64,000 nucleotides of DNA, from positions 620,001-684,000 of the forward strand of contig BMTG01000001.1 of assembly GCA_014649555.1 (NCBI GenBank), written 5' to 3'. Of this stretch, positions 20,269-43,211 are shown one piece after another. The notes below the pieces were generated by a model that searched no databases, was not told the DNA's origin, and worked only from the letters and a program-made list of their open reading frames with translations. Source of the DNA: Streptomyces globisporus. GTDB taxonomy: Bacteria; Actinomycetota; Actinomycetes; Streptomycetales; Streptomycetaceae. The first letter of the stretch is position 1, and the number at the start of each line of letters is the position of its first letter. Both the position numbers and the translations under genes were made by a program.

Positions 20269-20446
20269 CGGCCCAGCGTACCCAAACGCGATAGATCGCG
20301 ACTACCCCTCCAACCGGCGCGCCCTCGCCCGGGCTGGGTCCAGGTGAGCCTTACCTCACAGGATCCGCTCGAAGCCGGCGTTCTACCCTGGTGGACGCGC
20401 TGCCCGAGGGAGGTCAGCCGCTGTCGCCGAGTGAGGAATGGCCGTC

Positions 20447-22236: not shown

Positions 22237-23238
22237 TCAGTCGTCGAGCAGGCCCGATGTCGCTACCAGGTAGCCGAGTTGGGCCCGGCTGTTGCTGCCG
22301 AGCTGCTCGGAGACCTTGCGCATGTGCTCGGCAACACTGCGGCGGCTCATGCCGATCCGGCGGCCGATCGCGGCGTCCGTCTCGCCGTTGACGACGGCCT
22401 GGAGGATCGCGCGCTGGAGGTCGGAGGTGACGACGGGGGTGCGCAGCGGCGCGCGTTCGGGGCGTACGGGGACGGCGCGGGACCACGCCTCGTCGAAGTG
22501 GCGGACCAGGAAGCGGACCAGCGCCGGGTGCCGGACGCGCAGCGCGGTGTGCGGTTCGTCGGAGTACGGGATGAAGGCGAGGTCCCGGTCGAAGACGATG
22601 AACCGGTCCATGACCTCGGGCAGGGTCCTGATCTCGGCCCCTTCGGCGGTCACCTGCTCGATGTAGGCGAGCGTGGTGCGGTCGGAGCGCACGGTGTGCT
22701 GGTAGAGGGTGCGCTGCCGGATACCGCGCCGCAGGTTGTTCAGATCGCGTGGGAGGGACTCGGCCAGGACGTGGGCGGGGCGGCCGCCGCCGGGGTGGGC
22801 GGTGCGGACCTCGGCGCGGCAGCCGCTGACCCCGGCGTCCAGGGCTTTGCTGATGACGGCTTCCCCGGAGAGCCGCGTGAGGGCGGGGCGTTCGGGCCGG
22901 TGGACCTCGGCGTAGAGGCCCTCGAAGGCGGCGAGGGTGGCCCGGGCGGAGCGCAGGGTGCGGCGCTGCTCGACGATCGCCTTCTCGATCGGGGCGAGCG
23001 CGGCGAACGAGGCGGTCTCCGGCGGTACGGGGATGAGGTGACCGGGCGAGTCCTGGTCGGCGACCAGCAGATGCAGGGAGAGCAGACAGGGGGGTGCGGC
23101 GGCGGCCGGGAGGCTGCCCTGCGTCAGCGCACGGCGATAGGTCGCGAGCGCCGCCTCGCAGGGTTGTTCCGGTATCGACCGGTCCGAGGGTGATTCACGG
23201 CAATCACATACCGGTGAGGGGGAATGATCGTCCTTCAC
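22237..23238 (-). CDS. LuxR-type transcriptional regulator of the cluster
   Basis: About 333 residues from GTG 23238, chosen because a longer frame would run over the divergent MFS start; AAAGG lies about 14 bases upstream. The C-terminal 60 residues are a LuxR-like helix-turn-helix (ILQAVVNGETDAAIGRRIGMSRRSVAEHMRKV). The first ~260 residues resemble the phospholipase D-like/TrmB-type sensor part of small LuxR regulators common beside Streptomyces peptide and polyketide clusters (RRGIRQRTLYQHTVRSDRTTL). There is no receiver domain or ATPase. It is divergent from the exporter and biosynthetic operon and is the likely pathway-specific switch. Confidence 0.82.
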   Translation of the reverse strand: MKDDHSPSPVCDCRESPSDRSIPEQPCEAALATYRRALTQGSLPAAAAPPCLLSLHLLVADQDSPGHLIPVPPETASFAALAPIEKAIVEQRRTLRSARATLAAFEGLYAEVHRPERPALTRLSGEAVISKALDAGVSGCRAEVRTAHPGGGRPAHVLAESLPRDLNNLRRGIRQRTLYQHTVRSDRTTLAYIEQVTAEGAEIRTLPEVMDRFIVFDRDLAFIPYSDEPHTALRVRHPALVRFLVRHFDEAWSRAVPVRPERAPLRTPVVTSDLQRAILQAVVNGETDAAIGRRIGMSRRSVAEHMRKVSEQLGSNSRAQLGYLVATSGLLDD

Positions 23239-23308
23239 AAGGATGCAGATTACCTTTGTGCAATCGGGAGTCTCCCGCCCGGCTCCCGCGCTCGACGAGT
23301 ATGAGCGG
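23239..23308. promoter_or_regulatory. Divergent promoter region of the biosynthetic cluster
   Basis: About 70 bases, AT-richer than the surroundings (contains gcagattacctttgtg), between the LuxR-type gene and the MFS gene. It should hold the promoters for both, and a binding site for the regulator is expected here. No perfect palindrome is evident. Confidence 0.5.
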
Positions 23309-24736
23309 GTGACATCTGGAATCGGGAGTGCGGACGGGCCGACGGCGGACGAGGCGGACGGCGGATCTCGAAAGACCCGGGACACCGAGGTCTCCGAGCG
23401 CCGTTTTCGATTCCTGGTGGCCGGATACGCGGTGTCTTCCTACGGCACATTCCTGAATATGGTCGCGCTCAATCTCTTCGTCTACGAGACGACGGGCCGG
23501 GCGCTGGCCATGGGGCTGTTCATGGCGGTGCGGCTGGCCTCCGGATTCGTCGCCGGACTGCTCGTCGGCGGACTGCTCGCCCGTTTCAGCGCGAAAAGCA
23601 TCATGCTGTGGGCGAATGTCGGACAGGGCGCTGTGATGCTGGTGCTCATCCTGGCCCCGGACTCCCTGGTGACCGGGGCGTTGATGGCCGTCTCGGTGGT
23701 GATCGGGGCGTGCGGGACGCTGTTCATGGTCGCGTTGCGCAGCTCGATCCCGGAGATGGTCGGGGAGGACCGCAGGGCCTGGGCCAACTCCCTGTCGATC
23801 ACCGGTCGTTCGATGGCCATGGTGGCGGGGTTCGCCTCGGCGGGCGTGGTGGTGTCCCTCGTCGGGTACACCGCCGCGTTCCTGCTCGACATGGCGACGT
23901 TCGTGATCTGCGCGGTGACGGTGGCCCTGCTGCCGATCGCGGGCGGCAAGGGGGCGGGGAGCGAGGCCGGGTCCTCCGGTACCGGGAAGGGCGAGAAGGA
24001 AGCGAAGAGCGGGCCGCGGTGGCGGCCGGTGGCCTTCCTGGCGCTCGCCGCCGCTCCCGGTCTCGGCCTGATGGTGGCCCTGCGCGGGGTCGACGCGTTC
24101 GGTTCCTCGTCCCACAACGCGGCGCTGCCGATCTACTCGACGTCGCTGGACGCATCAAACCCGGCGGTGTTCGTCAGCGCGTTCTGGTGTGTGTGGGCGC
24201 TCGGCAACATCGGTGCCCAGCAGGTGATCCAGCGGTACACCCAGCGCACCGGCAAGACCGTGGGGGCGCTCGGATTCGGCTACGGCACGGTGGTGATGTC
24301 GGCGGCGTTCATCGCGGCGTTCGCCGGGTTCCCGCTGGCGGTCACAGCGGTGATCGCGCTGATCGCGGGGGCCGCGGACGGTCTCACCGAGGTCGCCTAC
24401 ACCTCGCACCTCCAGACACTTCCGGCCACGTTGCGCGGTCACGCCTTCGGTCTTTCGGCCACTTTCGAGAACCTGGGTTTCGGGGTCGGCATGATCCTGG
24501 TGGCGGCGGCCCTGGACCGGTTCTCCCCGCTGGCCGTGGTGGGCTGGTCCCACGGCGCCGCCATCGTCGTCGCCGTGGTGTTCCTGCTGCGGGTGGCGGC
24601 GCTGCGACGGGCGGAGCCCGCAGGTCCGACGGGGCGGGCGGGCGAGGCGGGGCGGGCGGGGCTGCGAAAGGAAGAAGCCGTTGAGGGACGACCGGATCGC
24701 GGTGATCGGGACGGCGCTGAGGTTTCCCGGGGCTGA
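23309..24736 (+). CDS. MFS exporter of the biosynthetic cluster
   Basis: About 475 residues from GTG 23309; an ATG at 23243 is also in frame but lacks a spaced ribosome site and would consume the promoter. Twelve hydrophobic helices are arranged as an MFS drug or siderophore exporter of the EntS-like type (YAVSSYGTFLNMVALNLFVYETTG, LARFSAKSIMLWANVGQG). A charged cytoplasmic loop (EAGSSGTGKGEKEAKS) splits the two halves. It is the first gene of the biosynthetic strand, and the PKS start lies inside its last 56 bases. Likely exports the product. Confidence 0.85.
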   Translation: MTSGIGSADGPTADEADGGSRKTRDTEVSERRFRFLVAGYAVSSYGTFLNMVALNLFVYETTGRALAMGLFMAVRLASGFVAGLLVGGLLARFSAKSIMLWANVGQGAVMLVLILAPDSLVTGALMAVSVVIGACGTLFMVALRSSIPEMVGEDRRAWANSLSITGRSMAMVAGFASAGVVVSLVGYTAAFLLDMATFVICAVTVALLPIAGGKGAGSEAGSSGTGKGEKEAKSGPRWRPVAFLALAAAPGLGLMVALRGVDAFGSSSHNAALPIYSTSLDASNPAVFVSAFWCVWALGNIGAQQVIQRYTQRTGKTVGALGFGYGTVVMSAAFIAAFAGFPLAVTAVIALIAGAADGLTEVAYTSHLQTLPATLRGHAFGLSATFENLGFGVGMILVAAALDRFSPLAVVGWSHGAAIVVAVVFLLRVAALRRAEPAGPTGRAGEAGRAGLRKEEAVEGRPDRGDRDGAEVSRG

Positions 24737-27700
24737 CACCCCCGAGGCGTACTGGCGCGACATCCGGGCGGGCAGGAGCCGGGTACGCCGGTTCACCCGG
24801 GCCGAGTTCGCCGCGGCCGGGGTTCCGGCAGCGGAGTACGAGCGCCCGGGGTTCGGCGGTGCGAGCGCCCCTCTGGAGGGCGTGGACGGCTTCGACGCCG
24901 GGTTCTTCGGGATGAGCGGGCGGGAGGCCGAGCTCACCGATCCGCAGCAGCGGCTGTTCCTGGAGTGCTGCTTCCACGCGCTGGAGGACGGGGGGTACGC
25001 GGGCGGCGAGGACCGTTACGCGGGCCTTGACGGCGGCTCCGTACGCATCGGGGTGTACGGCAGTTCCGGCTACCGCCTGTACTCGCTGCACAGCTATCTG
25101 GCGCACCACCTCGCGGCCGAGGCCGGCTCGGGCGACTGGATGACCGCCAAGCAGGTCCAGGTCGGCAACTACACCGACTTCACCGCCACCCGGGCCGCCT
25201 TCCGCCTCGGGCTGACCGGACCCGCGCTCACCGTGTCCACGGCCTGTTCCAGTGCCCTGGTCTCGGTGCATCTGGCCTGCCAGGCGCTGCGCGCCGGGGA
25301 CGCGGACCTGATGCTGGTGGGCTCCGCCGCCCTGCATCTGCCGCAGGTCAGCGGCCATGTCCCGGTGAAGGGCTCCACGCTCTCCCCCACCGGCACGGTC
25401 CGGGCGTTCGACGCGGACGCGGACGGCACGGTCGGCGGGAACGGGGCAGCCGCCGTCCTCCTGAAGCCGCTGGAGCGGGCGCTGGCCGACGGCGACACCG
25501 TGCACGCGGTGATCCTGGGCTCGGCGGTCACCAACGACGGTGCGGACAAGCGGGGGTTCGCCGCTCCCGGGGTCGCCGGGCAGCGGGACGCGGTGCTCGG
25601 GGCGCTGCGCGCGGCGGACCTGGACGCGGCGACGATCGGCTATGTGGAGGCGCACGGTACGGGCACGCTGAAGGGCGATCCGATCGAATTCGCCGCCCTG
25701 ACCGAGGCGTTCCGCGCGCACACGGACCGGACCGGGTTCTGTGCGCTCGGCTCGACGAAGCCGGCCATCGGCCATCTGGACAGTGCGGCGGGGCTTGCGG
25801 GGCTGATCAAGGCCGTCGAGGTGCTGCGGCACGGGATCGTCCCGCCGCTGGTGAACTTCGCCCGGCCCAACCCGGCGCTGGCGGTGGACGACAGCCCGTT
25901 CCTGCTGCCGGTACGGGAGCGGGCCTGGCCGCTGGCCGGGGTGCGGCGAGCCGGTGTGCACTCCATCGGCATGGGCGGTACGAACGCTCACGTGATCCTG
26001 GAACAGGCTCCGGAGGCCGTGCCCCTGCCCCCTGCGCCGCCGGCCGCTCCCGTTCCCGCCCTGCTGCCGCTGTCGGCCGCCGACGGGGAGGCGCTGCGGG
26101 CGTACGCCACCGCCCTGCGGGACCACCTGGCGGACGGGGCTCGCCCCTCCCCCGCCGATCTGCTGACCACGACCGCGCTCGGGCGGCGGCTCCTGCCGCA
26201 CCGGCTGGTGGTCACGGCGGCGGACCCGGTGGCCGGGCTGGAGGCGTTCCTGTCCGGGGCCCCGGCGGGCGAGGCGTATACGACCGGGGTCGCCGACGGC
26301 GTACGGGATCCGGCACCGGTGTTCCTGTTCAGCGGGCAGGGCGGCGGCCACCCGGGGATGGGCGCCGAACTCGCCGCGCGGTTCCCGGTAGTGGCCGAGG
26401 TGCTGGAGTCCTGCGCCCGGGTGTACGCGGAGGAGACCGGCCGGGACGACTTCCTGGACCGGATCGTCGGCGGGCAGGGCTCCGCACGGTGGGACACCGC
26501 TTTCGCGCAGCCCGCCCTGTTCGCCCTCCAGCTCGCCCAGGCCCGCCTGTGGGAACGGCTCGGGGTCACCCCCGCCCGGGTCGCCGGGCACAGCGTCGGC
26601 GCGTACGCGGCGCTCTGTGTGGCCGGGGCGCTGGACACCGAGGACGCGATGCGGCTGGTCTGCGGGCGCGGGCGGCTGATGCAGGAACGATCCGCTCCGG
26701 GCGCGATGGTTTCCGTGTTCGTCCCCCGGGTCCGGGTGCGGGAGCTCCTTGCCGCCGTCCCCGGCCTTGAGCTCGCCGTGGTCAACGGGGCGATGCACCA
26801 GGTGCTGGGCGGCTCCCCGGAGGCGGTGGAAGCGGTGCGGGCGCTGCTGGCGGCGCGCGGTGAGGCGTACGAAGTGCTGACGGTGGACCGGGCGTTCCAC
26901 ACGGCGCTCCTCGATGCGGCGCTGGAGGAGTTCCGCGTCCTGGCCGACAAGACGGAACCACGCCCGCTGCACACGGAGTTCATCGACGGGATCGACGGCA
27001 CGGTCCGCCCCGCCGGGTGGCGGCCGGACGCCGCCTACCTGGTCGCGCAGGCCCGCCGTACGGCCGACTTCGCCGCTGTGATGGCGAAGTTGGGCCCCAC
27101 GCCCCTGCTGCTGGAGCTGGGCCCGTCCGCCGTGCTGACGGGGCTGGTCCGCCGGACGTCGCCGGACGCTGTCTGTCTGCCGACGCGGGACTTGGAGCGG
27201 GCGGTGGCCGCCCTGCACTGCGCCGGGGCCGGGGTGGACTGGGCGGCGCTGCTCGACGGCTGCGGCGGCCGGCGCGTCCGGCTGCCCACGTATCCCTTCC
27301 AACGACGCTCCCACTGGCGGGGTCCCGCACCGTACGTTCACCCATCCCCACGCTCCACGGAGGACCGCATGACCGAACAGGCCGTACTGGACAGGGTGCT
27401 GGAGCTGACCGCGCGCCATCTCGGCCACCGGTCGGACGAGGTCTCCGCCGACCGCACGTTCGTCGGGCTCGGCGCGGACTCGCTCCAGCTCATCGGGATG
27501 GTGCGACAGTTGGAGGCCGAGTTCGGCACGGAGATCAGCATGCGGGAGGTCCTGGAGGAGGCGGGCACGCCCCGGCTGACGGCCGCGCTGATAGCCGGGC
27601 GGACGGCTCCCTCGGTGGCGCCCCCGCCCTCGGCTGCTCCCCTCCCTGCCTCGGCCACCCTCACCGCCCCGGCGGCCCCGCGCCCGGCCCCTCTGGCAGC

Positions 27701-27884
27701 CCCGGCGGCCGCAGCGGTGGCGGCCCCGGTGGCCGACGAGCCCGTGTACGCCACCCGGGCCGAGGTCACCGCCCTGTCCGAGCAGATACGTCAACTGGCG
27801 GAGACCCAGGCGGCGATGCTCACCCAGCTCTCCGAGGCCGTCGCCCTGCTGACCGCCCGCACCACCGGGACGGACGCGCGATGA
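24681..27884 (+). CDS. Type I polyketide synthase, KS-AT-ACP
   Basis: Starting from TTG 24681 (AAGGAAG upstream) the protein has 1067 residues and overlaps the MFS gene by 56 bases. The ketosynthase (about 1-430) has a full triad: C189 in TACSSA, H325 in EAHGTGT, H365 in AIGHLDSAAG. The acyltransferase (about 545-860) has S638 in GHSVGAY and RAFH where malonyl-type domains have HAFH, so malonyl-CoA is expected. The ACP carries S934 in LGADSLQ. No KR, DH or ER is present, so the beta-keto group stays for the aminotransferase in the next protein. The C-terminus (VTALSEQIRQLAETQAAM) looks like a docking helix. No loading module is visible. Confidence 0.93.
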   Translation: MRDDRIAVIGTALRFPGADTPEAYWRDIRAGRSRVRRFTRAEFAAAGVPAAEYERPGFGGASAPLEGVDGFDAGFFGMSGREAELTDPQQRLFLECCFHALEDGGYAGGEDRYAGLDGGSVRIGVYGSSGYRLYSLHSYLAHHLAAEAGSGDWMTAKQVQVGNYTDFTATRAAFRLGLTGPALTVSTACSSALVSVHLACQALRAGDADLMLVGSAALHLPQVSGHVPVKGSTLSPTGTVRAFDADADGTVGGNGAAAVLLKPLERALADGDTVHAVILGSAVTNDGADKRGFAAPGVAGQRDAVLGALRAADLDAATIGYVEAHGTGTLKGDPIEFAALTEAFRAHTDRTGFCALGSTKPAIGHLDSAAGLAGLIKAVEVLRHGIVPPLVNFARPNPALAVDDSPFLLPVRERAWPLAGVRRAGVHSIGMGGTNAHVILEQAPEAVPLPPAPPAAPVPALLPLSAADGEALRAYATALRDHLADGARPSPADLLTTTALGRRLLPHRLVVTAADPVAGLEAFLSGAPAGEAYTTGVADGVRDPAPVFLFSGQGGGHPGMGAELAARFPVVAEVLESCARVYAEETGRDDFLDRIVGGQGSARWDTAFAQPALFALQLAQARLWERLGVTPARVAGHSVGAYAALCVAGALDTEDAMRLVCGRGRLMQERSAPGAMVSVFVPRVRVRELLAAVPGLELAVVNGAMHQVLGGSPEAVEAVRALLAARGEAYEVLTVDRAFHTALLDAALEEFRVLADKTEPRPLHTEFIDGIDGTVRPAGWRPDAAYLVAQARRTADFAAVMAKLGPTPLLLELGPSAVLTGLVRRTSPDAVCLPTRDLERAVAALHCAGAGVDWAALLDGCGGRRVRLPTYPFQRRSHWRGPAPYVHPSPRSTEDRMTEQAVLDRVLELTARHLGHRSDEVSADRTFVGLGADSLQLIGMVRQLEAEFGTEISMREVLEEAGTPRLTAALIAGRTAPSVAPPPSAAPLPASATLTAPAAPRPAPLAAPAAAAVAAPVADEPVYATRAEVTALSEQIRQLAETQAAMLTQLSEAVALLTARTTGTDAR
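27359..27371 (+). promoter_or_regulatory. Internal ribosome-binding site and ATG before the PKS ACP
   Basis: GGAGG at 27359-27363 is followed five bases later by an in-frame ATG at 27369 (residue 897 of the PKS). Translation from here would give a free ACP of about 170 residues with the docking helix. The site sits exactly in the AT-ACP linker. Confidence 0.45.
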
Positions 27885-30800
27885 ACGCCGGGACACCCGC
27901 ACCCGCCGACGCTGCGGCAGGGGCCTCCGAGGCCGTGGCCCGGGCGGCGGAGCTGTCGCGGGCGCTCACGGACCGACTCGCGGCGGCCCGCGCGCAGATC
28001 GCGGCGGAGGCCCCGACGGAGAAGCCACAGCCCGCCGAGGAGAGCGCACACGGCCCCCGGCTCGTCGTGGACGCGGCGGGCGGGATGGCCGGGACGGGGG
28101 CCGACGAGGCGCAGCGGGCCCACACCGCGTCGCTGGTCCGACGGTTCACCGAGCGCACCCGGACCTCCAAGGAGCTGGCCCAGCAGCACCGTTCGGTGCT
28201 GGCCGACAGCCGGGCCGTCGTGGGGTTCCGGGACGCCACCAAGGAGATGCTGTACCCGGTCGCGGCCCGCTCGGCGCACGGCTCGCGCCTGATCGACGTG
28301 GACGGCAACGCGTACACCGACATCACCATGGGTTTCGGCGCACTGCTGCTGGGCCATGAGGCGGAGCCGGTCACCGAGGCCGTGCGCCGCCACCTCGCCG
28401 ACGGGCTGCGCTTCGGCCCCCGCTCCCCCGACACCGGCGAGGCGGCGGCCCTGCTCGCCTCGCTGACCGGCATGGAGCGGGTCGCCTTCGCCTCGTCCGG
28501 TACGGAGGCGAACTCGGCGGCGATCAGGCTGGCCCGGGCCGCGACCGGGCGCGACAAGGTCGTCATGTTCCGGGGCTCGTACCACGGGCACATCGACTCC
28601 GTCCTCGGCCGTCCCGGCGGCCCGGGGCAGCACGCGGTGCCCGTCTCCCTGGGCATCCCGGACAGCGCGGTGGCGGAGCTGATCGTGCTGGAGTACGGGG
28701 AGCAGGAGTCCCTGGAGACGATCGACGCCCTCGGGGACTCGATCGCGGCCGTGCTCGTCGAGCCCGTGCAGTGCCGCAACCCGGGCCTGCGGCCGGTGGA
28801 GTTCGTGCGGTCGCTGCGTGAACTCACGGCGCGCCGGAACATCGTGCTGCTCTTCGACGAGATGCTGACCGGACTGCGGCCCCACCAGCGCGGTGCGCAG
28901 GCCCACTTCGGGGTGGTGCCGGACCTCGCCACGTATGGCAAAGCGCTCGGCGGCGGCTTCCCGATCGGTGCGGTGGCCGGGCGGGCGGATCTGCTCGACG
29001 GGGTGGACGGCGGATTCTGGCGGTACGGGGAGCCCGGCGGGCCCGCGCGCGAGACCACGTTCATCGGCGGCACGTACATGCAGCACCCGCTGTCGATGGC
29101 GGCGGCCCGCGCGGTGCTCACCCACCTCACCGAGCAGGGCCCCGCACTCCAGAGCGGGCTGAACGCCCGCACGCAGGCGCTCGCGGACCGGCTCAACGCC
29201 TTCTTCCGCGACGAGGAATTCCCGCTGGAGCTGGCCCACTTCGGGTCGATGTTCCGCTTCCGGCACCGCGCCGACCTGGAGTTGCTCTACCACCACCTCC
29301 AACTGCGCGGTGTGTACGTCTGGGAATGGCGCAGCTTCTACCTCTCCACCGCCCACACGGAGGAGGACGTGAACCGGGTGGCCGAGGCCGTGGAGGGGTC
29401 GCTGCGCGAGCTGCGCGACGGCGGGTTCTTCCCCCGGTCCGCTCCGCGCGCGGCTGCGGCCGTGAAGCCGGTCGACGCCCCGCGCCCGGCCCCCGACTTC
29501 GGCGTCTACTTCTTCGGCGACCACCGGGAGACGGAGGAAGCCGCCGAGGCGGGCGGAAGCGGCGGGAGCGGCACTCCGGAGGCGTACGACGCGCTCCTCG
29601 AGACCGTGCGCTTCGCCGACGAGCACGGCTTCTCCTCCGTCTGGCTGCCCGAGCGGCACTTCGACTCCTTCGGCGGGCTCTTCCCGAACCCCGCCGTGCT
29701 CGCCTCCGCCGTGGCCCGGGAGACCGGTCGCGTCCGGATCAACGCGGGCTCGGTGGTGCTGCCGCTGCACGATCCGGTGCGGGTCGCCGAGGAGTGGTCG
29801 GTGGTCGACAACCTCTCCGGCGGCCGGGTCGGCATCGGCTGCGCCACCGGCTGGCACGCCCGGGACTTCGCCCTGCACCCGGACCGGTTCGCGGACCGGC
29901 GGCGGATCGCCTTCGACCACCTCGACGAGGTGCGGCGGCTGTGGCGCGGGGAGGCGGTGCGGCGGCGCACCGGCGAGGGCGCGGAGGCGGAGATCCGGAT
30001 CCGGCCGCGTCCGGTGCAGGAGGAGCCGCCGTTCTTCCTGGCGACCTCCGGTCAGCGGGCCTCGTACGAGGAGGCGGCCCGGCGCGGTCTCGGGGTCGTC
30101 ACCAACCTGATGAGCCAGACCGTGGACGAGCTGGCGGCGAACATCGCGCTCTACCGGCGTACGCGGGCGGCGTGCGGGCTCGACCCGGACGCCGGGCGGG
30201 TGACGGTGCTGGTGCACACGTACCTGGGCGACGACCACGCCACCGCCCGGGCGGACGCGCTGGAGCCGATGGTGCGCTACCTGCGGTCCTCGCTGCTGAT
30301 GCGCTCGGCGGCGACGGCGGCCGGACAGCGGCGCGAGGACGTGGCGGCGGCGAGCGAGGAGGACCTGGACTATCTGTTCCGCCGGGCCTACGACCGCTAC
30401 TGCGACCGGCGGGCCCTGATCGGTACGCCGGACAGCGTCGCCCCGTTCGTGGCCGCGCTGCAGGGGGCCGGGGTGGACGAGATCGCCGCGCTGGTCGACT
30501 TCGGGATGGACCGGGAGCGGCTGCGGTCGGGTCTTGAGCGGCTGGACGTGCTGCGCCGCCGGACGCGGGAGCGGGCGGCCGAGGCAGCGGCGGAGGCCGT
30601 ACGGGAGACCGTCGCGCCCGCCACCTCCGCCCAGCGGCGGCTGTGGCTGGCCGCGCAGTTGCTGGAGAACCCGGCGGCGTACAACGAGACCCAGGCCGTA
30701 CGGCTGCGCGGCCCGCTGGACGTGCCGGCGCTGCGGGCGGCGGTCGACGGCCTGGTCGAGCGGCACCCGGGGCTGCGGACGGTGTTCCGGGGCGAGGACG

Positions 30801-33706
30801 AGGCCGGCGTCGTCCAGGTCGTCCGCGACGGGCTCCGCATCCCGTTGGCGGTGTCCGACGCCCGGGGACAGGACCCGGACGAGGTGATCGCGGCGCTGCT
30901 CTCCGAGGAGAGCCACCGCGCCTACGACCTGGCCCGGGGGCCGCTGTTGACGCCCCGGCTGCTCCGGCTGGCCGAAGACGATCACGTCCTGGTCCTCGGG
31001 ATGCACCACATCGTCACGGACGCGCATTCGGCCGCGCTGATCGCCGGGGACCTTCGGGAGCTGTACACGGCGGCCCGCGCCGGGCGCCCGCCGGTCTTCG
31101 CCCGGCCCGCCGGGACGACCGCCGGGGCACCCGAGCCGCCGCACGACCCGGCCGACCTTGCCTGGTGGCGTGAGCTGCTGGGCGAGAAGCCCCCGGTGCT
31201 CACCCTGCCGACGGACCGGCCGCGCGGGCGCCGGGTGGCGGGGCACGGCGGGGCGGTGGCCCGGAGCGTGGGGCGGGAGCGGGCGGACCGGCTGCGGGAG
31301 TGGAGCGGGCAGCAGGGCGTGACCCTGTTCGCGACGCTGTGCACGGCCTGGCAGCTGGTGCTGCGGCGGCGGTCCGGGCAGGACGCGTTCCTGCTGGGTA
31401 CGACGTTCGGGCGGCGGCGGCCGGAGACGGCGGACACGGTGGGCTTCCATGTGGCCCTGCTGCCGTTGGCTGTCTCCGCGACGGACGCCACCCCGCTGCC
31501 GGAGGCCGTACGGGCCACCGGCCGGGCGCTGTTCGCGGCGGAGGAGCACAGCGGGGTGGACCTGGACGCGCTGGTGGCCGCCGTCCACCCCGACCCGGGG
31601 AACCCCCGGCCGCTGGTGACGGTTTCGGTCGATCTGGACCGCGCGGCACTGGCCGGAATCGAACTGCCCGGGCTGCGTGCGGAGGGGGTGGCGGCCGGGA
31701 CGGAGTCGGCGCCGCTGGAGCTGGCACTGATGGCCACCCACGCTCCGGACGGAAGCCTGCGGCTGCGGCTGCGGTACGACACGGACCTGTTCGACGCGGC
31801 GACGGCGGAGGGGTATCTCGCGGAGCTGGATCGGCAGTTGGACGCGGTGACAGCCGCACCGCGTGAGGAGCCCGCACGACGCGAGGAGCACGCACCGAGC
31901 GCGGAGGCCGTCCCGCGCGAGGGGGCCGCCCCGCGCGAGGAGCACTCGGAGCGCGAGGCTCCCGCCCCGGACACCGCGGCGCTGCTCCGTGAGATCTGGG
32001 AGTCCGTCCTCGATGCGCGCGGCTTCCCCGCCGACAGCAACTTCTTCGACCTGGGCGGCAATTCGATCGCCGCGATCCGCCTCGTGAACCGGGTCCGGGA
32101 CACCCTCGGCGTCGACTACCCGCTGGTGGACTTCTTCGCCGAGGCCACCCTGCGGGCCATGACCGCGCAGCTGGTGACCGGCGACGGGCCCGCCTCGGCG
32201 GCGGAGGACAGCCCCGCCGAGGACACCGCCGTCGTCGATCGCGCCCCCGTCAGCGACCAGCAGGCCCGCATGATCGCCGGGCACCACGCCATGCCCGACC
32301 CCGCCGTGTGGAACGTCCCCACCCGGATCACGTTCACCGGGGCGCTGGATGCGGCGGCCCTGAGGTACGCCGTGTCCGAGGTGATCGCCCGGCACGACGC
32401 GCTGCGCACCCGGTTCGTCCAGGAAAACGCGCCGGACGGGCCCTGGTGGCAGGAGGTCGTGGCGGCGGAGCCGGTGGCGTTGCCGGTGGAGGATCTGACG
32501 GCGCTGCCCGCCGGTGAGCGACGGCCCCGGGCGGACGCCCTGTGCCGGGCGGACGCGGCGGCCCCGTTCGAGCTGGGGCAGGCGCTGCTGCCCCGGCTGC
32601 GGCTGCTGCGGGTCGAGGAGGACCGCTGGCAGCTGATGTTCGTCCTGCACCACGTGTGCGCCGACGGCTGGTCGCTGTCCCTGCTGCTCGCGGAGATCGC
32701 CGCGCTGTACACGGCGGCCGCCGCGGGCGTCCCGCACGGACTGCCCGACCCGGCGATGCAGGCGCCCGGGTACGCGCGGTGGCAGCGGGAGCACCACGAT
32801 CCCGGGACCGAGGAGGAGCGGGCCGCGTTCTGCGCCGCCTATCTGGAGGGGGTGCCGTCCGCCGTCCCCGTACCGACGGACCGGCCGCGTCCGCAGAAGC
32901 TGAGCGGGCACGGGGACACGGTGCGCGGGGTCGCGTCGGGCGATGTGCGGGCGGCGGTGGAGAAGCTCGCGGCCGACCGGCACACCACCCCGTTCGCCGT
33001 CGCCGCCGCCGCGCTCGGGGTGTTCCTGACCCGGCTGTCGGGTGAGGAGGACACCTTGCTGAGCGTGCCGTACGCCAACCGCGAGGGCACCGCTTCGGAG
33101 TCGCTCGTGGCGATGACGTCCACAGCGGTGATGGTTCGCGTACGACTGGATTCAGCCAATCTTGCGGAGACGTGCGCGGAGCTCGCGGTGCGTACGGGGG
33201 CGGGTGCGCTCGGCGCCATGGCGCATGTGCTGCCCACGGCCCGCATCATGCAGGCGATGCGGGACGCGGGCGCTGTCAGCGTCCCCGACCGGGTGCCGCA
33301 CGTCCTGGCCTTCCAGAACTCCGTCGACACGGACATCGAGGTCCCCGGGCTGCGGGTCGAGGTGGCCGATCTGGCACCGCCGCTTTCCCGCAGCGAGCTG
33401 TGCTTCGGGCTTGCGCCGCGCCGGGACGCCGCGAAGGGTTATCGAACGTTCCTGGAATTCTCCACCGACCTGTGGGACCACACGACCGCCCACGACCTTC
33501 TCGGGTCGTACACCGACCTGCTCGCGGAGTTCTGCGCCCGGCCCGACCGGCCGGTGCGGGAACTCCTCGGGGGGCGCCCCTCCCAGGGGTCCTCGGGCCA
33601 AGGCTCCGGGGGCTCCGCCCAGGGCGCCAGCGCCGGGCCCGACCAGCCCGGCGGACCGTCACCCTCCCTGTCATTGCCGAACACCGGAAAGGCGGACGCC
33701 GTATGA
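27881..33706 (+). CDS. Hybrid aminotransferase-monooxygenase-NRPS protein (AMT-LLM-C-PCP-C)
   Basis: 1941 residues; the ATG overlaps the PKS stop (ATGA). After an N-terminal helical docking-like region come: a class III aminotransferase of the glutamate-semialdehyde type (about 110-525; PLP lysine K354 in TYGKALGGG); a luciferase-like flavin monooxygenase (about 538-890; FGVYFFGDHRE, WLPERHFDSFGG); a condensation domain (about 910-1310; HHIVTDA at 1042-1048, with alanine replacing the usual glycine); a linker of degenerate REE repeats; a PCP (S1395 in LGGNSIAAI); and a second condensation domain (about 1455-1890; HHVCADG from 1590). A glycine/serine/proline-rich tail ends it. No adenylation domain is present. 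Expected chemistry is beta-transamination, then alpha-hydroxylation of the acyl chain, then amide formation. The order of the two tailoring steps is inferred. Confidence 0.9.
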   Translation: MNAGTPAPADAAAGASEAVARAAELSRALTDRLAAARAQIAAEAPTEKPQPAEESAHGPRLVVDAAGGMAGTGADEAQRAHTASLVRRFTERTRTSKELAQQHRSVLADSRAVVGFRDATKEMLYPVAARSAHGSRLIDVDGNAYTDITMGFGALLLGHEAEPVTEAVRRHLADGLRFGPRSPDTGEAAALLASLTGMERVAFASSGTEANSAAIRLARAATGRDKVVMFRGSYHGHIDSVLGRPGGPGQHAVPVSLGIPDSAVAELIVLEYGEQESLETIDALGDSIAAVLVEPVQCRNPGLRPVEFVRSLRELTARRNIVLLFDEMLTGLRPHQRGAQAHFGVVPDLATYGKALGGGFPIGAVAGRADLLDGVDGGFWRYGEPGGPARETTFIGGTYMQHPLSMAAARAVLTHLTEQGPALQSGLNARTQALADRLNAFFRDEEFPLELAHFGSMFRFRHRADLELLYHHLQLRGVYVWEWRSFYLSTAHTEEDVNRVAEAVEGSLRELRDGGFFPRSAPRAAAAVKPVDAPRPAPDFGVYFFGDHRETEEAAEAGGSGGSGTPEAYDALLETVRFADEHGFSSVWLPERHFDSFGGLFPNPAVLASAVARETGRVRINAGSVVLPLHDPVRVAEEWSVVDNLSGGRVGIGCATGWHARDFALHPDRFADRRRIAFDHLDEVRRLWRGEAVRRRTGEGAEAEIRIRPRPVQEEPPFFLATSGQRASYEEAARRGLGVVTNLMSQTVDELAANIALYRRTRAACGLDPDAGRVTVLVHTYLGDDHATARADALEPMVRYLRSSLLMRSAATAAGQRREDVAAASEEDLDYLFRRAYDRYCDRRALIGTPDSVAPFVAALQGAGVDEIAALVDFGMDRERLRSGLERLDVLRRRTRERAAEAAAEAVRETVAPATSAQRRLWLAAQLLENPAAYNETQAVRLRGPLDVPALRAAVDGLVERHPGLRTVFRGEDEAGVVQVVRDGLRIPLAVSDARGQDPDEVIAALLSEESHRAYDLARGPLLTPRLLRLAEDDHVLVLGMHHIVTDAHSAALIAGDLRELYTAARAGRPPVFARPAGTTAGAPEPPHDPADLAWWRELLGEKPPVLTLPTDRPRGRRVAGHGGAVARSVGRERADRLREWSGQQGVTLFATLCTAWQLVLRRRSGQDAFLLGTTFGRRRPETADTVGFHVALLPLAVSATDATPLPEAVRATGRALFAAEEHSGVDLDALVAAVHPDPGNPRPLVTVSVDLDRAALAGIELPGLRAEGVAAGTESAPLELALMATHAPDGSLRLRLRYDTDLFDAATAEGYLAELDRQLDAVTAAPREEPARREEHAPSAEAVPREGAAPREEHSEREAPAPDTAALLREIWESVLDARGFPADSNFFDLGGNSIAAIRLVNRVRDTLGVDYPLVDFFAEATLRAMTAQLVTGDGPASAAEDSPAEDTAVVDRAPVSDQQARMIAGHHAMPDPAVWNVPTRITFTGALDAAALRYAVSEVIARHDALRTRFVQENAPDGPWWQEVVAAEPVALPVEDLTALPAGERRPRADALCRADAAAPFELGQALLPRLRLLRVEEDRWQLMFVLHHVCADGWSLSLLLAEIAALYTAAAAGVPHGLPDPAMQAPGYARWQREHHDPGTEEERAAFCAAYLEGVPSAVPVPTDRPRPQKLSGHGDTVRGVASGDVRAAVEKLAADRHTTPFAVAAAALGVFLTRLSGEEDTLLSVPYANREGTASESLVAMTSTAVMVRVRLDSANLAETCAELAVRTGAGALGAMAHVLPTARIMQAMRDAGAVSVPDRVPHVLAFQNSVDTDIEVPGLRVEVADLAPPLSRSELCFGLAPRRDAAKGYRTFLEFSTDLWDHTTAHDLLGSYTDLLAEFCARPDRPVRELLGGRPSQGSSGQGSGGSAQGASAGPDQPGGPSPSLSLPNTGKADAV

Positions 33707-35004: not shown

Positions 35005-35052
35005 CCGGACTCCGGCAGAAGAGCCGCCGGAAGAGAAAGAACAGGAGCGATC

Positions 35053-35793
35053 GTGGCCGACGAAGACACCGTCCTCATCTGCCTGCCCTTCGCCGGGGCG
35101 GGCCCCTCCTTCTTCACGCCCTGGCAGAAGCTCGCGCCGGAGGGGCTGCGGATCCTCCCGGTCTCCCTGCCGGGCCGCGAGAAGCGCTTCCCCGAGCCCG
35201 CGTACGATGCGGCGGCCCCGGCCGTCGACGACGCGTACGCGCAGGTGACGGCGGCGCTCGGCGGGACGGACGGGGACGGGGGCGGCAGCCCGGTCGTGCT
35301 GTTCGGGCACAGCATGGGCGCGGTGCTCGCGTACGAGCTGGCGCACCGGATCGAGCGGGCGGGCGGGCCGGTCCGCCTGGCCGCGCTCGTCGTCAGCGGT
35401 GCGCCCGGCCCCTGGACGCCGCGCACGGACCGGGCGGACGGGCTGCCGGACGAGGAGTTCGCCGCCCGGGTCCGGGCGTTCGCCGGGTACGACCACCCGG
35501 CGCTGGCGGACCCGGAGATGCGGGAGCTGCTGCTGCCGGCGCTGCGGGCGGACGTCCGGCTCCACGAGACGTATGTGCCCTCCACGGACAGCCCGTTGGG
35601 CGTTCCCGTCATCTCCGTCCGGGGTCGGGAGGACACCCTCGTGGGGGCTGCGGAAGCGGCCGAGTGGGGCCGGGCGACGACCGGGAAGCTCACGGTGGCC
35701 GAGCCGGCCGGCGGGCACATGTATCTGGCCGAGCGGCCGGGCGAGCTGCTGGAGCTGGTGGCCGCCGAGGTGCGCGCGGCGAGGGGCCGGTGA
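35053..35793 (+). CDS. Type II thioesterase
   Basis: A 246-residue alpha/beta hydrolase of the editing thioesterase group. It begins with the typical ICLPFAGAGPSFF, has the nucleophile S87 in GHSMGAV and the histidine H222 in PAGGHMYL. AGGAGCGATC precedes the GTG. Type II enzymes clear misprimed carrier proteins. Because no carrier protein in this cluster is fused to a release thioesterase, this one may also release the product. It follows the aminopeptidase by 48 bases and overlaps the SDR gene. Confidence 0.9.
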   Translation: MADEDTVLICLPFAGAGPSFFTPWQKLAPEGLRILPVSLPGREKRFPEPAYDAAAPAVDDAYAQVTAALGGTDGDGGGSPVVLFGHSMGAVLAYELAHRIERAGGPVRLAALVVSGAPGPWTPRTDRADGLPDEEFAARVRAFAGYDHPALADPEMRELLLPALRADVRLHETYVPSTDSPLGVPVISVRGREDTLVGAAEAAEWGRATTGKLTVAEPAGGHMYLAERPGELLELVAAEVRAARGR

Positions 35794-36695
35794 CCGGCGA
35801 CGGGACGGGCCCGGGCACGGGGCCGGTGACCGGCGGCGCCGGCACCGGTCCGGTGTCCGGCGCTGGTGCGGGGCGGCTGGCCGGGCGGGCGGCGGTGATC
35901 ACGGGGGCGGCGCGCGGTCTCGGCCGGGCCTGTGCCCTGGCGTTCGCCCGTGAGGGGGCGGACCTGATGCTGCTGGACGTGGCGGGCGAGCTGCCCGGGG
36001 TGCCGTATCCGCTCGGCTCGGCCTCGCAGCTCGCCCACACCGCGGACCTCTGCCGCGAGGCGGGGTCCGCCGTGCTCACCCGGCAGGCGGACGTGCGGGA
36101 CCTGGCGGCGCTGGAGGCGGCGGCGGATGCGTCCGAGGAGCGGTTCGGGCGGATCGACGTATTGGTCAACAACGCGGGTATCGCCGCCCCTTCGGGCCGT
36201 CCGGCACACGAGATCACCGAAGCCGAATGGCAGTTGATGATCGATGTGGATCTGGGCGGCGCATGGCGGGCGATCCGTGCGGTGGGGGCCCGGATGGTCG
36301 CCCAGGGGTCGGGTTCGATCGTCAATGTCGCATCGACGGCGGGGCTGGTGGGCTACCGGCACTTCGCGGGGTACGTCGCGGCGAAGCACGGTCTGGTGGG
36401 CCTGACGAAGGCGGTGGCCCTGGACTACGCGCCCCGCAAGGTCCGGGTCAACGCGGTCTGTCCGGGCTCGGTGCGGGACGACGAGGCGATGGAGGGCCGG
36501 ATGCTGGCGGAGATCGCCCGCTCGCTGGAGGTGCCCGTGGCGGTGCACGAGGAGACCTTCGTCCGGGACCAGCCGATGAACGCGCTGGTGGAGCCGGGTG
36601 ATGTGGCGGACGCGGTCCTCTGGCTGGCCACGGACGCGTCCCGGCAGGTGACCGGCAGCGTGGTCACCGTGGACGGCGGCTTCACCGCCCGCTGA
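35790..36695 (+). CDS. Short-chain dehydrogenase/reductase, mycofactocin-type signature
   Basis: 301 residues from GTG 35790, overlapping the thioesterase stop (GTGA). The first ~25 residues are a glycine/threonine-rich low-complexity stretch, and an internal GTG at 35852 is an alternative start. The Rossmann motif TGAARGLGRA, NNAGI, and catalytic Y195 and K199 (YVAAKHG) are present. The segment LPGVPYPLGSASQLAHTADL followed by RQADVRD matches the insertion of mycofactocin-dependent SDRs, which hold NAD tightly and need that redox partner. In this pathway it may oxidise or reduce a hydroxyl of the intermediate. Substrate unknown. Confidence 0.85.
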   Translation: MTGDGTGPGTGPVTGGAGTGPVSGAGAGRLAGRAAVITGAARGLGRACALAFAREGADLMLLDVAGELPGVPYPLGSASQLAHTADLCREAGSAVLTRQADVRDLAALEAAADASEERFGRIDVLVNNAGIAAPSGRPAHEITEAEWQLMIDVDLGGAWRAIRAVGARMVAQGSGSIVNVASTAGLVGYRHFAGYVAAKHGLVGLTKAVALDYAPRKVRVNAVCPGSVRDDEAMEGRMLAEIARSLEVPVAVHEETFVRDQPMNALVEPGDVADAVLWLATDASRQVTGSVVTVDGGFTAR

Positions 36696-36738
36696 CTCCG
36701 GTCTCCGATATCCCTTCGCCCTCCGAGGAGTTGCGTAC

Positions 36739-39321
36739 GTGCCGCCTGTCCAGCACAGCCTGACGGTCCGCCTGTCGACGAACGTCACCGACGCAGCGCT
36801 CGACGCCGCCCTCACGGCGGCGGCCGAGCTGTGGTGGCCCGGCGACCGCCGCCCCCGGCTGTGGACGGAGCCCGTGCCCGCCCCGGCCGCATCCGACGCG
36901 GCGGCCCGGCGCCGCGCGGCCGAGGCGAGCCGCCCCGTCGCATCCGGTCACCGGCTGCGCGCGGTGCTGCTGCGGTACGGGGACGAGCGGCGGGAAGGGG
37001 CGGCTGCGGCTCCCGATCTCGTCCTGACGGCCGACGGATCCGCCCTGGACGCGCGTTCGTTGCGGGTCGTCGCCCGGGTCCTGCGGGGCGATCTGGCCCC
37101 GGAGGCGGTGACGCCGCTCGCCGGTCCGCTCCCGCTCGACCTGCGCCTCGACGAGGAGACCCGCCGCCTCGCCTCGGCGCTCGCGCTGACCGTCGGGCGG
37201 TACGAGGGGGCGTCCGCGGTGCGCGTCGCCGTCCCCGTACCGGCCCGGGACCGGCCGCCGTACGCGCTGGGGGCACTGGACGGGTACGCGGTGTTCGCGG
37301 CGGACCTGTCGCCCGGCCGTACGGTCGCGCAGCTGCTGGCCACCGAGCCGGTCGCCCCGGCCGTCGGGGAGGAGCCACCTTCGCCGGAGTTGATGGCGAG
37401 CGATGGGCCCGCCGTCCTGCCGACCGGACCGGGCACCCTCCCCGTACCCGCACGCCAAGTGGATGACATACGGCAGCAGTTGCTGACCAGCACACCCAAC
37501 GCTCGTCTCTCGCAGCTGAATCCGCTGAGCGAGGCGGAGTCGGCGGAGCAACTGGCCCTCGGAGCCCGTCCCGCGCCCCCGGCCTCCTCCCTCCGCATCG
37601 ACGAAGCCTTCGCCGCGCAGGTCGCCGCCCGCCCCGAGGCCCCCGCGCTCACCGCCGGGTCCACCACGCTCTCGTACGCCGAACTCGACGCCCGAGCAGA
37701 GGCGTTGGCGGACGGGCTGTACGCCCGCGGGGTCCGCCCCGGTGATCTGGTCGGGCTCTGTCTGCCCCGCTCGACGGACCTGGTGGCGGCGATGCTCGCC
37801 GTGCTGAAGGCGGACGCCGTTCACGTACCGCTGGATCCGGAACATCCGGCGGACCGGCGGGAGCGCACCGCGCGGGACGCCGGGGTCCGGCTGACGGTCG
37901 AGGACCCGGCCACCCTCACCGGCCACCCGCCCCGCCCCGCCGCACCCCGCGGAGAGCCGGGCTCACCCGCGTACGTCATCCACACCTCGGGATCGACCGG
38001 CCGCCCCAAGGGCGTCGTCGTCCCGCACGCCAACGTCACGGCCCTGGTCGACGCCGTCCGCGAGGACTTCGGCCTCTCCCCGGACGACACCTGGACGTGC
38101 TTCCACTCGGCGGCGTTCGACTTCTCGGTGTGGGAGATCTGGGGCGCGCTGCTGACGGGCGGGCGGCTGGTGGTCGCGGACCACTGGACCACCCGCTCCC
38201 CGGAGGACTTCCACGCCCTGCTGGTCCGGGAGCGGGTGAGCGTGCTGAGCCAGACCCCCTCCGCGTTCACCCAGCTCGCGGCGGCCGACCGGACCGCGCC
38301 CGACCCGGTAGGAACCCGGCTGGTGGTGCTCGGCGGCGAACCGCTCGGCGCCCGGCCGCTGCTGGACTGGTTCGACCGGCACCCGGAGGACCGCTGCCGG
38401 CTGGTCAACATGTACGGGATCACCGAGACCACCGTCCATGTCACGGCGGCCACGGTGACCCGGCGCGACGCGCTCGCCGGTTCCCGGTCCGTGGGGCGGC
38501 CGCTGCCCGGCTGGTCGGTCCGGGTGCTGGACGCGCACGGGCGGCCGGTGCCGCCGGGTGCGCCCGGGGAGATCGTGGTGGGCGGGGCGGGCGTGGCGCT
38601 CGGCTATCTGAACCGGCCCGCCCTGACCGCCGAACGCTTCGTCCCGGACCCCCTGGACCCGGCGGGGCGGCGGCTCTACCGCAGCGGGGACCTGGGGCGG
38701 CTGCTGCCCGACGGAACGCTGGAACACCTGGGCCGGATCGACGACCAGGTGCAGGTGCGGGGCTTCCGGATCGAGCCGGGCGAGATCCGGCACGTGCTGC
38801 TGGAGGACCCGGCGGTGTCGGCGGCGGCGGTCACCGTGACCGGCGGCGACGCCGGGGACGCGGCGGCCGTGCGGATCGACGCGTACGTGGTTCCGGCCCC
38901 GGGGGCGGGCGAGGACCCCGGCCCCGTACGGGAGCGGGCGGCCCGGCTGCTCCCGCCGCACATGGTGCCCGCGACGGTGACCGTGCTGCCGGCCCTCCCC
39001 CTCACCGCGAACGGCAAGCTGGACGCAGCCCGGCTACCCGCGCCCGGGACGCGGCGCGATCCGGTGACGGCCCCGGCCCCGGCCGCAGCGGCTCACGAGG
39101 CCGGTCCGGCCGCCGCCCTCGCCGCCATCTGGTGCGACGTGCTCGGCGTCGAGACGATCGGCCCGGACGACGACTTCTGGGATCTGGGCGGCAATTCGCT
39201 GTACGCGATCCGCATCGGCACGCTCGCCCGGGAGCGCGGGCTGCCCGGTGTACCGCTGCGCCAGCTGTATCTGACGCCGACGCTGGGGGCACTGTCCGAG
39301 GCCCTGGCCCGGAAGACATGA
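36739..39321 (+). CDS. NRPS protein: degenerate condensation domain, threonine-type A domain, PCP
   Basis: 860 residues; GTG start with GGAG eight bases upstream. Residues about 1-265 align with a shortened condensation domain in which HHxxxDG has become LTADG (LVLTADGSALD), so both catalytic histidines are gone. The adenylation domain (about 285-780) is complete: HTSGSTGRPKG, NMYGITETTVH, YRSGDLGRL, LTANGKLD. Specificity positions read from the motifs give D-F-W-S-V-G-M-V-H-K, close to known threonine codes. The PCP carries S820 in LGGNSLYAI. No thioesterase follows. As the only A domain in the cluster it may charge both this PCP and, in trans, the PCP of the large hybrid protein. Confidence 0.9.
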   Translation: MPPVQHSLTVRLSTNVTDAALDAALTAAAELWWPGDRRPRLWTEPVPAPAASDAAARRRAAEASRPVASGHRLRAVLLRYGDERREGAAAAPDLVLTADGSALDARSLRVVARVLRGDLAPEAVTPLAGPLPLDLRLDEETRRLASALALTVGRYEGASAVRVAVPVPARDRPPYALGALDGYAVFAADLSPGRTVAQLLATEPVAPAVGEEPPSPELMASDGPAVLPTGPGTLPVPARQVDDIRQQLLTSTPNARLSQLNPLSEAESAEQLALGARPAPPASSLRIDEAFAAQVAARPEAPALTAGSTTLSYAELDARAEALADGLYARGVRPGDLVGLCLPRSTDLVAAMLAVLKADAVHVPLDPEHPADRRERTARDAGVRLTVEDPATLTGHPPRPAAPRGEPGSPAYVIHTSGSTGRPKGVVVPHANVTALVDAVREDFGLSPDDTWTCFHSAAFDFSVWEIWGALLTGGRLVVADHWTTRSPEDFHALLVRERVSVLSQTPSAFTQLAAADRTAPDPVGTRLVVLGGEPLGARPLLDWFDRHPEDRCRLVNMYGITETTVHVTAATVTRRDALAGSRSVGRPLPGWSVRVLDAHGRPVPPGAPGEIVVGGAGVALGYLNRPALTAERFVPDPLDPAGRRLYRSGDLGRLLPDGTLEHLGRIDDQVQVRGFRIEPGEIRHVLLEDPAVSAAAVTVTGGDAGDAAAVRIDAYVVPAPGAGEDPGPVRERAARLLPPHMVPATVTVLPALPLTANGKLDAARLPAPGTRRDPVTAPAPAAAAHEAGPAAALAAIWCDVLGVETIGPDDDFWDLGGNSLYAIRIGTLARERGLPGVPLRQLYLTPTLGALSEALARKT

Positions 39322-40947: not shown

Positions 40948-41052
40948 TGCGCCTCCCGGTAAGTGGTTACCCCCGGTATTTACTGGCTGGTAGGCCGCTT
41001 GGGAATACAGAGAACAAGACAAGTGCTCATCTTTTTCAGGAGGTTTAAACAC
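40948..41052. promoter_or_regulatory. Divergent promoter region, esterase and fumC
   Basis: An AT-richer 105-base region between the two starts. The fumC ribosome site AGGAGG lies eight to nine bases before its ATG. No clear operator symmetry is seen. Confidence 0.45.
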
Positions 41053-42524: not shown

Positions 42525-43211
42525 ATGACAGGTACGGGAGAGTGCGCACGCTGGGCGCCGGGGGACCAGATCCTCTGGCGCTACCGCGACAACGGCCGGG
42601 CCCACCGGACGGCCGGTGCCGCGCCCGTGCACATCTGCCGTCCGGTGACCGTCGTGCAGGACACCGACGAGCTGCTCGCCGTCTGGATGGCGCCGGGCAC
42701 CGAGTGCGTGCGGCCGGTCCTGGCGAACGGCACCCAGGTGCACGCCGAGCCGCTGGCCACCCGCTACACCGCGCCGCGCACCACGGCCCGCTCGACGTGG
42801 TTCGGCTCCGGGGTGCTGAAGCTGGCCCGGCCGGGCGACCCGTGGTCGGTGTGGCTGTTCTGGGACCGCGGCTGGATGTTCCGCAACTGGTACGTGAATC
42901 TGGAGGAGCCCCGCACCCGGTGGTCCGGAGGGGTGGATTCCGAGGATCACTTTCTCGACATCTCCGTGAACCCCGACCGGAGCTGGAAATGGCTCGACGA
43001 GGACGAGTTCGCGCAGGCTCAGCAGGTCGGCCTGATGGACCGGGGGACGGCCCGGCGGGTCCGTGAGGCGGGCCTGGCGGCGGTCGAGGTGATCACCGGC
43101 TGGGGGTCGCCGTTCCGGGACGGCTGGGAGCACTGGCGGCCCGATCCGGGGTGGCAGGTTCCGCCGCTGCCGGATGACTGGGACCGTACCCCTGCCCGTA
43201 TGCCGTCGTGA
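42525..43211 (+). CDS. DUF402 (FomD-like) family protein
   Basis: A 228-residue cytoplasmic protein of the DUF402 family. Core motifs are WRYRDNGRAH, WMAPGTECVRPV, the central DPWSVWLFWDRGWMFRNWYVNLEEP, and DHFLDISVNPDRSWKWLDEDEF, where acidic residues bind metal in relatives. FomD, a characterised member, hydrolyses a cytidylyl phosphonate in fosfomycin biosynthesis, and others act on nucleoside diphosphates. Substrate here is unknown. It starts 56 bases after fumC and may share its transcript. Confidence 0.85.
   Translation: MTGTGECARWAPGDQILWRYRDNGRAHRTAGAAPVHICRPVTVVQDTDELLAVWMAPGTECVRPVLANGTQVHAEPLATRYTAPRTTARSTWFGSGVLKLARPGDPWSVWLFWDRGWMFRNWYVNLEEPRTRWSGGVDSEDHFLDISVNPDRSWKWLDEDEFAQAQQVGLMDRGTARRVREAGLAAVEVITGWGSPFRDGWEHWRPDPGWQVPPLPDDWDRTPARMPS

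What the first reader, a model, noticed from the sequence alone, without database searches (positions are those of the whole stretch)
22237..39321. Undescribed-looking PKS/NRPS cluster that predicts an alpha-hydroxy-beta-amino acyl peptide
Sequence shows: KS-AT-ACP without reductive domains, then a class III aminotransferase, a luciferase-like monooxygenase, C-PCP-C, an M18 aminopeptidase, a thioesterase, an SDR, and an A-PCP protein, nearly all coupled by overlaps. Established knowledge: aminotransferase domains in iturin/mycosubtilin-type synthases aminate beta-ketoacyl chains, and PKS proteins with an adjacent monooxygenase hydroxylate the alpha position. Inference: the product starts with a 3-amino-2-hydroxy acyl unit, the warhead of bestatin- and amastatin-type aminopeptidase inhibitors, joined to threonine-like residues.
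Basis: partly seen in the sequence, partly recalled or inferred. Interest (0 to 1): 0.88.

Follow-up and report, generated by a model that had tools for sequence, protein, structure and literature searches.

The report
Streptomyces aminopeptidase-inhibitor cluster with immunity gene
A Streptomyces gene cluster appears to build a short peptide with the same kind of warhead as known aminopeptidase blockers, and it carries a spare aminopeptidase that related bacteria keep even after losing the rest of the cluster, which suggests that the spare enzyme protects the cell.

Summary
In detail: 22237-39321 is one PKS/NRPS locus in the stated order; four of six junctions overlap. The warhead chemistry is supported: among solved structures the aminotransferase is nearest mycosubtilin synthase MycA (416 bits; best semialdehyde aminomutase 191) and the monooxygenase nearest PuwE. 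That logic is known from puwainaphycin and microginin, so it is not itself new.

It is in 51 of 51 class-I loci read past the synthetase and in 0 of 31 sister AMT-LLM loci (some strains in both sets), and is an extra copy in 22 of 22 class-I genomes. Of 41 genomes with the cluster-type M18, 19 lack the class-I synthetase; 14 of these keep it beside the fumarase genes where the window's cluster lies, six with LuxR and MFS. Frames are open in 20 of 20 orphans; dN/dS is 0.10-0.22 in eight pairs.

Best reading: a short 3-amino-2-hydroxyacyl peptide that inhibits aminopeptidases, with M18 as self-protection. Starter unit, first residue and SDR role stay open. No compound is shown.

The parts
22237..23385 (-). 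LuxR-type (GerE) regulator; alternative start 23238
   Evidence: Pfam PF00196 25.4 bits; divergent from MFS and conserved in many class-I loci
23243..24736 (+). MFS transporter, probably exporter
   Evidence: PF07690 87 bits; TIGR00900 70 bits, below its cut-off of 320
24681..27884 (+). PKS module KS-AT-ACP, no loading or reductive domain (TTG start, or GTG 24702)
   Evidence: PF00109, PF02801, PF00698, PF00550; motifs
27881..33706 (+). hybrid protein: class-III aminotransferase, luciferase-like monooxygenase, C1, PCP, C2 (no A domain)
   Evidence: PF00202, PF00296, two PF00668, PF00550; TIGR04020; MycA and PuwE best structures
28157..29400 (+). aminotransferase domain (approximate limits)
   Evidence: PF00202; 6kfm 416 bits
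29560..30562 (+). luciferase-like monooxygenase domain (approximate limits)
   Evidence: TIGR04020 429 bits; 6ket PuwE 326 bits
33703..35004 (+). M18 aminopeptidase, cluster-type; proposed self-protection gene
   Evidence: PF02127 443 bits, NF002759 572 bits; separate clade from housekeeping M18, 100/100; orphans
35053..35793 (+). stand-alone thioesterase
   Evidence: PF00975 114 bits; GHSMG
35790..36695 (+). SDR oxidoreductase
   Evidence: PF13561 184 bits; TIGR03971 282 bits, below its cut-off of 300; nearest structures carveol dehydrogenases
36739..37503 (+). degenerate condensation-like N-terminal domain of the A-PCP protein
   Evidence: low confidence
37504..39321 (+). adenylation domain (code DFWSVGMVHK) and PCP
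   Evidence: PF00501 292 bits, PF00550; code

Best explanation
The locus makes a small secreted peptide that inhibits aminopeptidases and protects its owner with a second, cluster-specific M18 aminopeptidase. KS-AT-ACP extends a short acyl starter (unknown; no ligase in the cluster) once with malonyl-CoA. The aminotransferase turns the beta-ketone into an amine and the monooxygenase hydroxylates the alpha carbon, giving a 3-amino-2-hydroxyacyl unit as in bestatin, amastatin and microginin. C1 joins it to an amino acid on the PCP, C2 joins that to the residue carried by the separate A-PCP protein (threonine by code), TE or hydrolysis releases it, MFS exports it. The SDR may oxidise the threonyl side chain or the alpha-hydroxyl. 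M18 stays active in the presence of the product (an insensitive copy of a target, or one that binds or destroys it). Shown by calculation: gene content, domain kinship, M18 co-inheritance, M18 retention without the synthetase. Inferred: every chemical step, the product, the inhibitory activity and the protective role.
For: Domains; AMT nearest MycA, LLM nearest PuwE; PuwE lies in a cluster whose product has a 3-amino-2-hydroxy acyl unit (PMC4219810, passages); microginins, with such a unit, inhibit aminopeptidases (PMC12250027, passages). M18 in 51 of 51 class-I loci that extend past the synthetase, 8 cut loci dropped, and in 0 of 31 sister loci. Extra M18 in 22 of 22 class-I genomes against 1 of 20 controls and 1 of 11 genomes with other AMT-LLM loci; both exceptions are orphans. 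19 of 41 genomes with cluster-type M18 have no class-I synthetase. Orphans are not one clade, p-AU 4e-5, at least 5 presence/absence changes. All 20 orphan M18 frames open; MFS broken in 2 of 6. dN/dS 0.099-0.221 in 8 orphan pairs, 0.116 in one housekeeping pair. AMT and M18 distances correlate, r 0.86, 0 of 2000 permutations.
Against: No compound, activity or expression data. Catalytic residues of the cluster M18 are intact, so it could process or degrade the product instead. Four of the 19 genomes without the class-I synthetase (G024, G075, G100, G166) carry a sister AMT-LLM locus, so there M18 could serve that product. Six orphan copies (L206-L211) lie elsewhere, at least two of them beside an AMP-binding ligase and an IclR regulator, which may mean another role. 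Some class-I clusters (L036, L039, L040, L041, L084, L107) lack SDR and A-PCP, so the core may work differently or be decaying. Whether M18 is a worthwhile target in Streptomyces is unknown.
Confidence: 0.6

Rival explanations
1. M18 is a biosynthetic enzyme: it trims an N-terminal residue from a precursor peptide or hydrolyses a by-product, and does not protect.
For: It is translationally coupled to the synthetase by a 4-base overlap and its metal-ligand columns are intact in 55 of 55 rows (ligands recalled).
Against: Kept without the synthetase in 19 of 41 genomes; present in class-I variants with different downstream modules; the assembly line has no module upstream of the amino acyl unit that would add an N-terminal residue.
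Confidence: 0.18
2. M18 (with LuxR and MFS) was an older resident of the fumarase site, unrelated to the product, and the synthetase genes were inserted beside it.
For: Fourteen genomes have M18 there without synthetase, six of them with LuxR and MFS.
Against: Class Ib and the distant class-Ia clusters show no glpX/fumB/fumC match in the held stretch, yet hold M18 in the same place; all deep branches of the M18 tree contain synthetase-bearing members.
Confidence: 0.1
3. The SDR oxidises the alpha-hydroxyl, so the final warhead is a 3-amino-2-oxoacyl (alpha-ketoamide) and the target may be another protease.
For: SDR conserved in class-Ia loci; alpha-ketoamide peptides such as eurystatin and poststatin are known from Streptomyces (recalled; names only seen in listing).
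Against: SDR travels with the threonine-type A domain and is absent from class Ib and Ic, which fits an action on the threonyl part at least as well; family match is below its cut-off.
Confidence: 0.15
4. The cluster is decaying or silent and makes no peptide in this strain.
For: Relatives show an erosion series at this site and some lack the A domain; L036 keeps only an A-domain fragment of about 105 residues (its L135).
Against: All reading frames in the window are open with intact motifs; two close named relatives have the complete order at 90% or more in nearly all domains (L073, L077).
Confidence: 0.12

Closest known systems
Puwainaphycin synthetase, PuwE region (cyanobacteria; PMC4219810, passages)
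   Same: One PKS module without reduction, then aminotransferase and monooxygenase, then NRPS; makes a 3-amino-2-hydroxy acyl unit; LLM here is nearest PuwE among solved structures.
   Different: Fatty-acyl ligase start, large cyclic lipopeptide, A domain in cis; no M18 gene named in the passages that I saw.
Microginin cluster mic (PMC12250027, passages)
   Same: KS-AT-ACP plus aminotransferase; linear peptide with N-terminal 3-amino-2-hydroxy acid; inhibits aminopeptidases.
   Different: FAAL micA, halogenase, long chain; 'resistance' and 'monooxygenase' do not occur in the main text of that review. No cyanobacterial mic sequence was compared here.
Mycosubtilin/iturin synthase MycA aminotransferase
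   Same: Closest solved structure of the aminotransferase (6kfm).
   Different: MycA starts with a fatty-acyl ligase and has no alpha-hydroxylating LLM (recalled).
Bestatin, amastatin, phebestin (Streptomyces products)
   Same: Predicted warhead of the same type (recalled chemistry).
   Different: No gene cluster for them was found in the open-licence library, so sequence comparison was impossible.

Membership tests
PKS/NRPS clusters with AMT + LLM that make a 3-amino-2-hydroxyacyl unit | Non-reducing KS-AT-ACP module followed by aminotransferase of the MycA type | tested here: met
PKS/NRPS clusters with AMT + LLM that make a 3-amino-2-hydroxyacyl unit | LLM of the TIGR04020 / PuwE type next to the aminotransferase | tested here: met
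   TIGR04020 429 bits over cut-off 244; PuwE 326 bits
PKS/NRPS clusters with AMT + LLM that make a 3-amino-2-hydroxyacyl unit | Product contains the unit | not testable with these tools
   no chemistry available
Microginin-type clusters | Fatty-acyl AMP ligase and acyl carrier for the starter | tested here: not met
   no such gene among the cluster's ORFs
Bestatin/amastatin-type aminopeptidase inhibitors | Peptide that inhibits aminopeptidases | not testable with these tools
   inferred from domain logic and the M18 gene only
Self-resistance by a second copy of the target enzyme | Extra copy beside a housekeeping paralogue | tested here: met
   22 of 22 class-I genomes; separate clades 100/100
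Self-resistance by a second copy of the target enzyme | Housekeeping copy is inhibited by the product, cluster copy is not | not testable with these tools
   needs product and enzymes

The most novel reading that the evidence does not exclude
The product is a natural inhibitor aimed at M18 (aspartyl-type) aminopeptidase, and M18 at the fumarase site is an immunity gene against it that spreads and persists on its own: many Streptomyces are non-producers that keep only the immunity, so the compound would be a currency of competition within the genus.
Probability: 0.3. Interest if true: 0.78.

Novelty: new variant of a known kind. Interest (0 to 1): 0.6.

Why it matters
Bestatin- and amastatin-type warheads are widely used aminopeptidase blockers, but no gene cluster for them turned up in the searches made here. 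This family offers a compact 17-kb route in Streptomyces to the same unit, with a built-in clue to the target. The immunity-only loci make a clear prediction that can be tested: strains with the orphan M18 should tolerate the product better than strains without it.

Tried and rejected
Lookups for a described cluster: ten paper searches gave no paper on this cluster or on bestatin/amastatin genes; the library holds open-licence PMC papers only, so this does not show that none is in print. A plasmid search found one record, Streptomyces sp. KN37, covering 5% of the query. Mycofactocin-dependence of the SDR: own genome has only four sub-threshold matches to the maturase model, best 41.7 bits against a cut-off of 265; all 14 control genomes also ring below cut-off and none is over it, so there was no positive control. 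Second copy of the A-PCP protein elsewhere in class-Ic genomes G346, G127, G019, G149: no match that includes the N-terminal domain, best matches 58-66% over query residues from 273 or later; against specificity, class-Ib genome G167 has a 50% match over 6-855 elsewhere. Structure of the N-terminal domain: model poor (pLDDT 59.9), condensation fold only suggested. KS kinship: nearest structures are KS of modular and hybrid PKS; no starter could be read from it. Active-site shift of M18: 11 columns separate 46 cluster-type from 9 housekeeping rows, two of them next to metal-ligand positions (L233, M315); suggestive, not tested for significance (ligand positions recalled).
Full report
What is there. 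The cluster is as described. Its AMT-LLM protein has no adenylation domain for its own PCP, the only A domain sits on a separate protein behind a shortened condensation-like domain, and there is no gene that would activate a starter acid. G+C is 74.4% against 71.4% upstream and 71.0% downstream. It lies in an 8.25-Mb genome between a class-I fumarase gene (20438-22117) and, past a GDSL/ricin-lectin gene on the other strand, a FumC/aspartase-family lyase (40963-42468), with glpX at 17891-18922.

Chemistry. PDB sequence search gives MycA aminotransferase 415.7 bits (residues 77-520), best glutamate-1-semialdehyde aminomutase 190.9 bits, PuwE 325.6 bits for the LLM and 98.5 bits for the next LLM. 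AT has an AFH motif, read as malonyl-specific (recalled). So one non-reducing extension, beta-amination and alpha-hydroxylation is the economical reading, as published for puwainaphycin (PMC4219810, passages) and for floridanemamide and tychonamide (PMC13252402, passages). Order of the two modifications is not known. The A-domain code is DFWSVGMVHK here and in 6 other class-Ia A domains; the remaining two of nine read DFWGVGMVHK and DFWNVGMVHK (own pattern script); its reading as threonine is recalled.

Family. Of 392 genus genomes, 26 have a full-length AMT-LLM match: 22 with M18 (class I, own genome included) and 4 without. A scan of 84,980 species gave 56 loci: 31 class I with M18, 7 class I cut before that point, 18 sister loci without M18. 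Named carriers of class Ia include S. rubiginosohelvolus, S. griseus NCTC13033, S. globisporus, S. parvus and S. anulatus. Class I has a constant core (MFS, KS-AT-ACP, AMT-LLM-C-PCP-C, M18; LuxR in many but not detected in all) and a changing tail: Ia TE-SDR-[C*]-A-PCP; Ib another TE and A-PCP, in 6 of 8 loci with an argininosuccinate-synthase-like gene; Ic without SDR and A-PCP. Sister loci have C-A-PCP in cis and no M18.

M18. The cluster-type M18 forms one clade (46 rows) apart from nine housekeeping M18s, 100/100; own-genome copies are 64-65% alike. Genomes: 21 of 21 further class-I genomes have two or three M18 genes, 10 of 11 with other AMT-LLM loci have one, 19 of 20 controls have one; the two exceptions, G024 and G005, hold orphans. 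The controls were picked by me from genomes with weak AMT-LLM scores. In the family search 117 of 118 good genomes have an M18 match. Over 392 genomes, 42 hits in 41 genomes are 73% or more identical to the cluster M18, the next is 68%. Nineteen of these genomes lack the class-I synthetase; four of the nineteen (G024, G075, G100, G166) have a sister AMT-LLM locus. With the second copy of G266 that makes 20 orphan genes.

Orphan sites. Fourteen orphans lie at the fumarase site: six as fumB-LuxR-MFS-M18-fumC side, one as LuxR-M18, six as M18 alone, one on a contig cut before fumB. The same site carries the complete cluster in the window and in loci L033-L042 except that L035 is cut and L036, L039, L040, L041 lack SDR and A-PCP. 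Six orphans lie elsewhere (L206-L211). Frames: M18 open in 20 of 20, LuxR in 7 of 7, MFS in 4 of 6 (L198 and L201 have early stops). dN/dS in eight orphan pairs, covering 13 of 20 orphans, is 0.099-0.221; cluster pairs 0.077-0.126; one housekeeping pair 0.116. On the M18 tree synthetase presence needs at least 5 changes, and holding the 20 orphans together is rejected, p-AU 4.1e-5, with the caution that the group was named from gene context before the tree but after the loci were seen. The tree used 26 class-I rows, 20 orphans and 9 housekeeping rows, a selection from the loci held. Some deep branches are weakly supported (94/77, 94/93), so the number and direction of losses are estimates.

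Reading. A gene that goes with the warhead core whatever the tail, and that is kept when the synthetase is lost, behaves like an immunity gene; the exporter and regulator are kept less often. That M18 is itself an aminopeptidase, and the predicted product an aminopeptidase-inhibitor type, makes target duplication the first guess and detoxification the second. Nothing here shows a product, an inhibition or protection.

Noticed in passing
fumarase site, L192-L205: Erosion series at one chromosomal site, from the complete cluster to LuxR-MFS-M18, LuxR-M18 and M18 alone.
   Followed up: yes
L206-L211: Cluster-type M18 without synthetase at other sites; in L160 (same place as L208) and L161 (as L206) it lies beside an AMP-binding ligase and an IclR-type regulator.
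   Followed up: partly
L058-L064, L069, L070 and named loci such as L108-L110: A sister family, MFS, KS-AT-ACP, AMT-LLM, C-A-PCP, C, without M18, common in Streptomyces; A code DALSLGVVLK in 8 of 9 read.
   Followed up: partly
L046, L047, L049, L050, L052, L053: Class-Ib clusters carry an argininosuccinate-synthase-like gene after A-PCP.
   Followed up: no
L036 / L135 (G346): An A-domain fragment of about 105 residues follows TE, a remnant of the lost A-PCP gene.
   Followed up: no
G000:C11:6516-7538: A second LLM of the same family inside a 2927-residue open frame in the window's own genome.
   Followed up: no
L103, L104, L122: AMT-LLM relatives at 67-71% in Amycolatopsis, Catenulispora and Kineosporia, without M18 in the held stretch.
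   Followed up: no
window 42525-43211: FomD-like DUF402 protein next to the fumC-like gene, conserved at this site.
   Followed up: no
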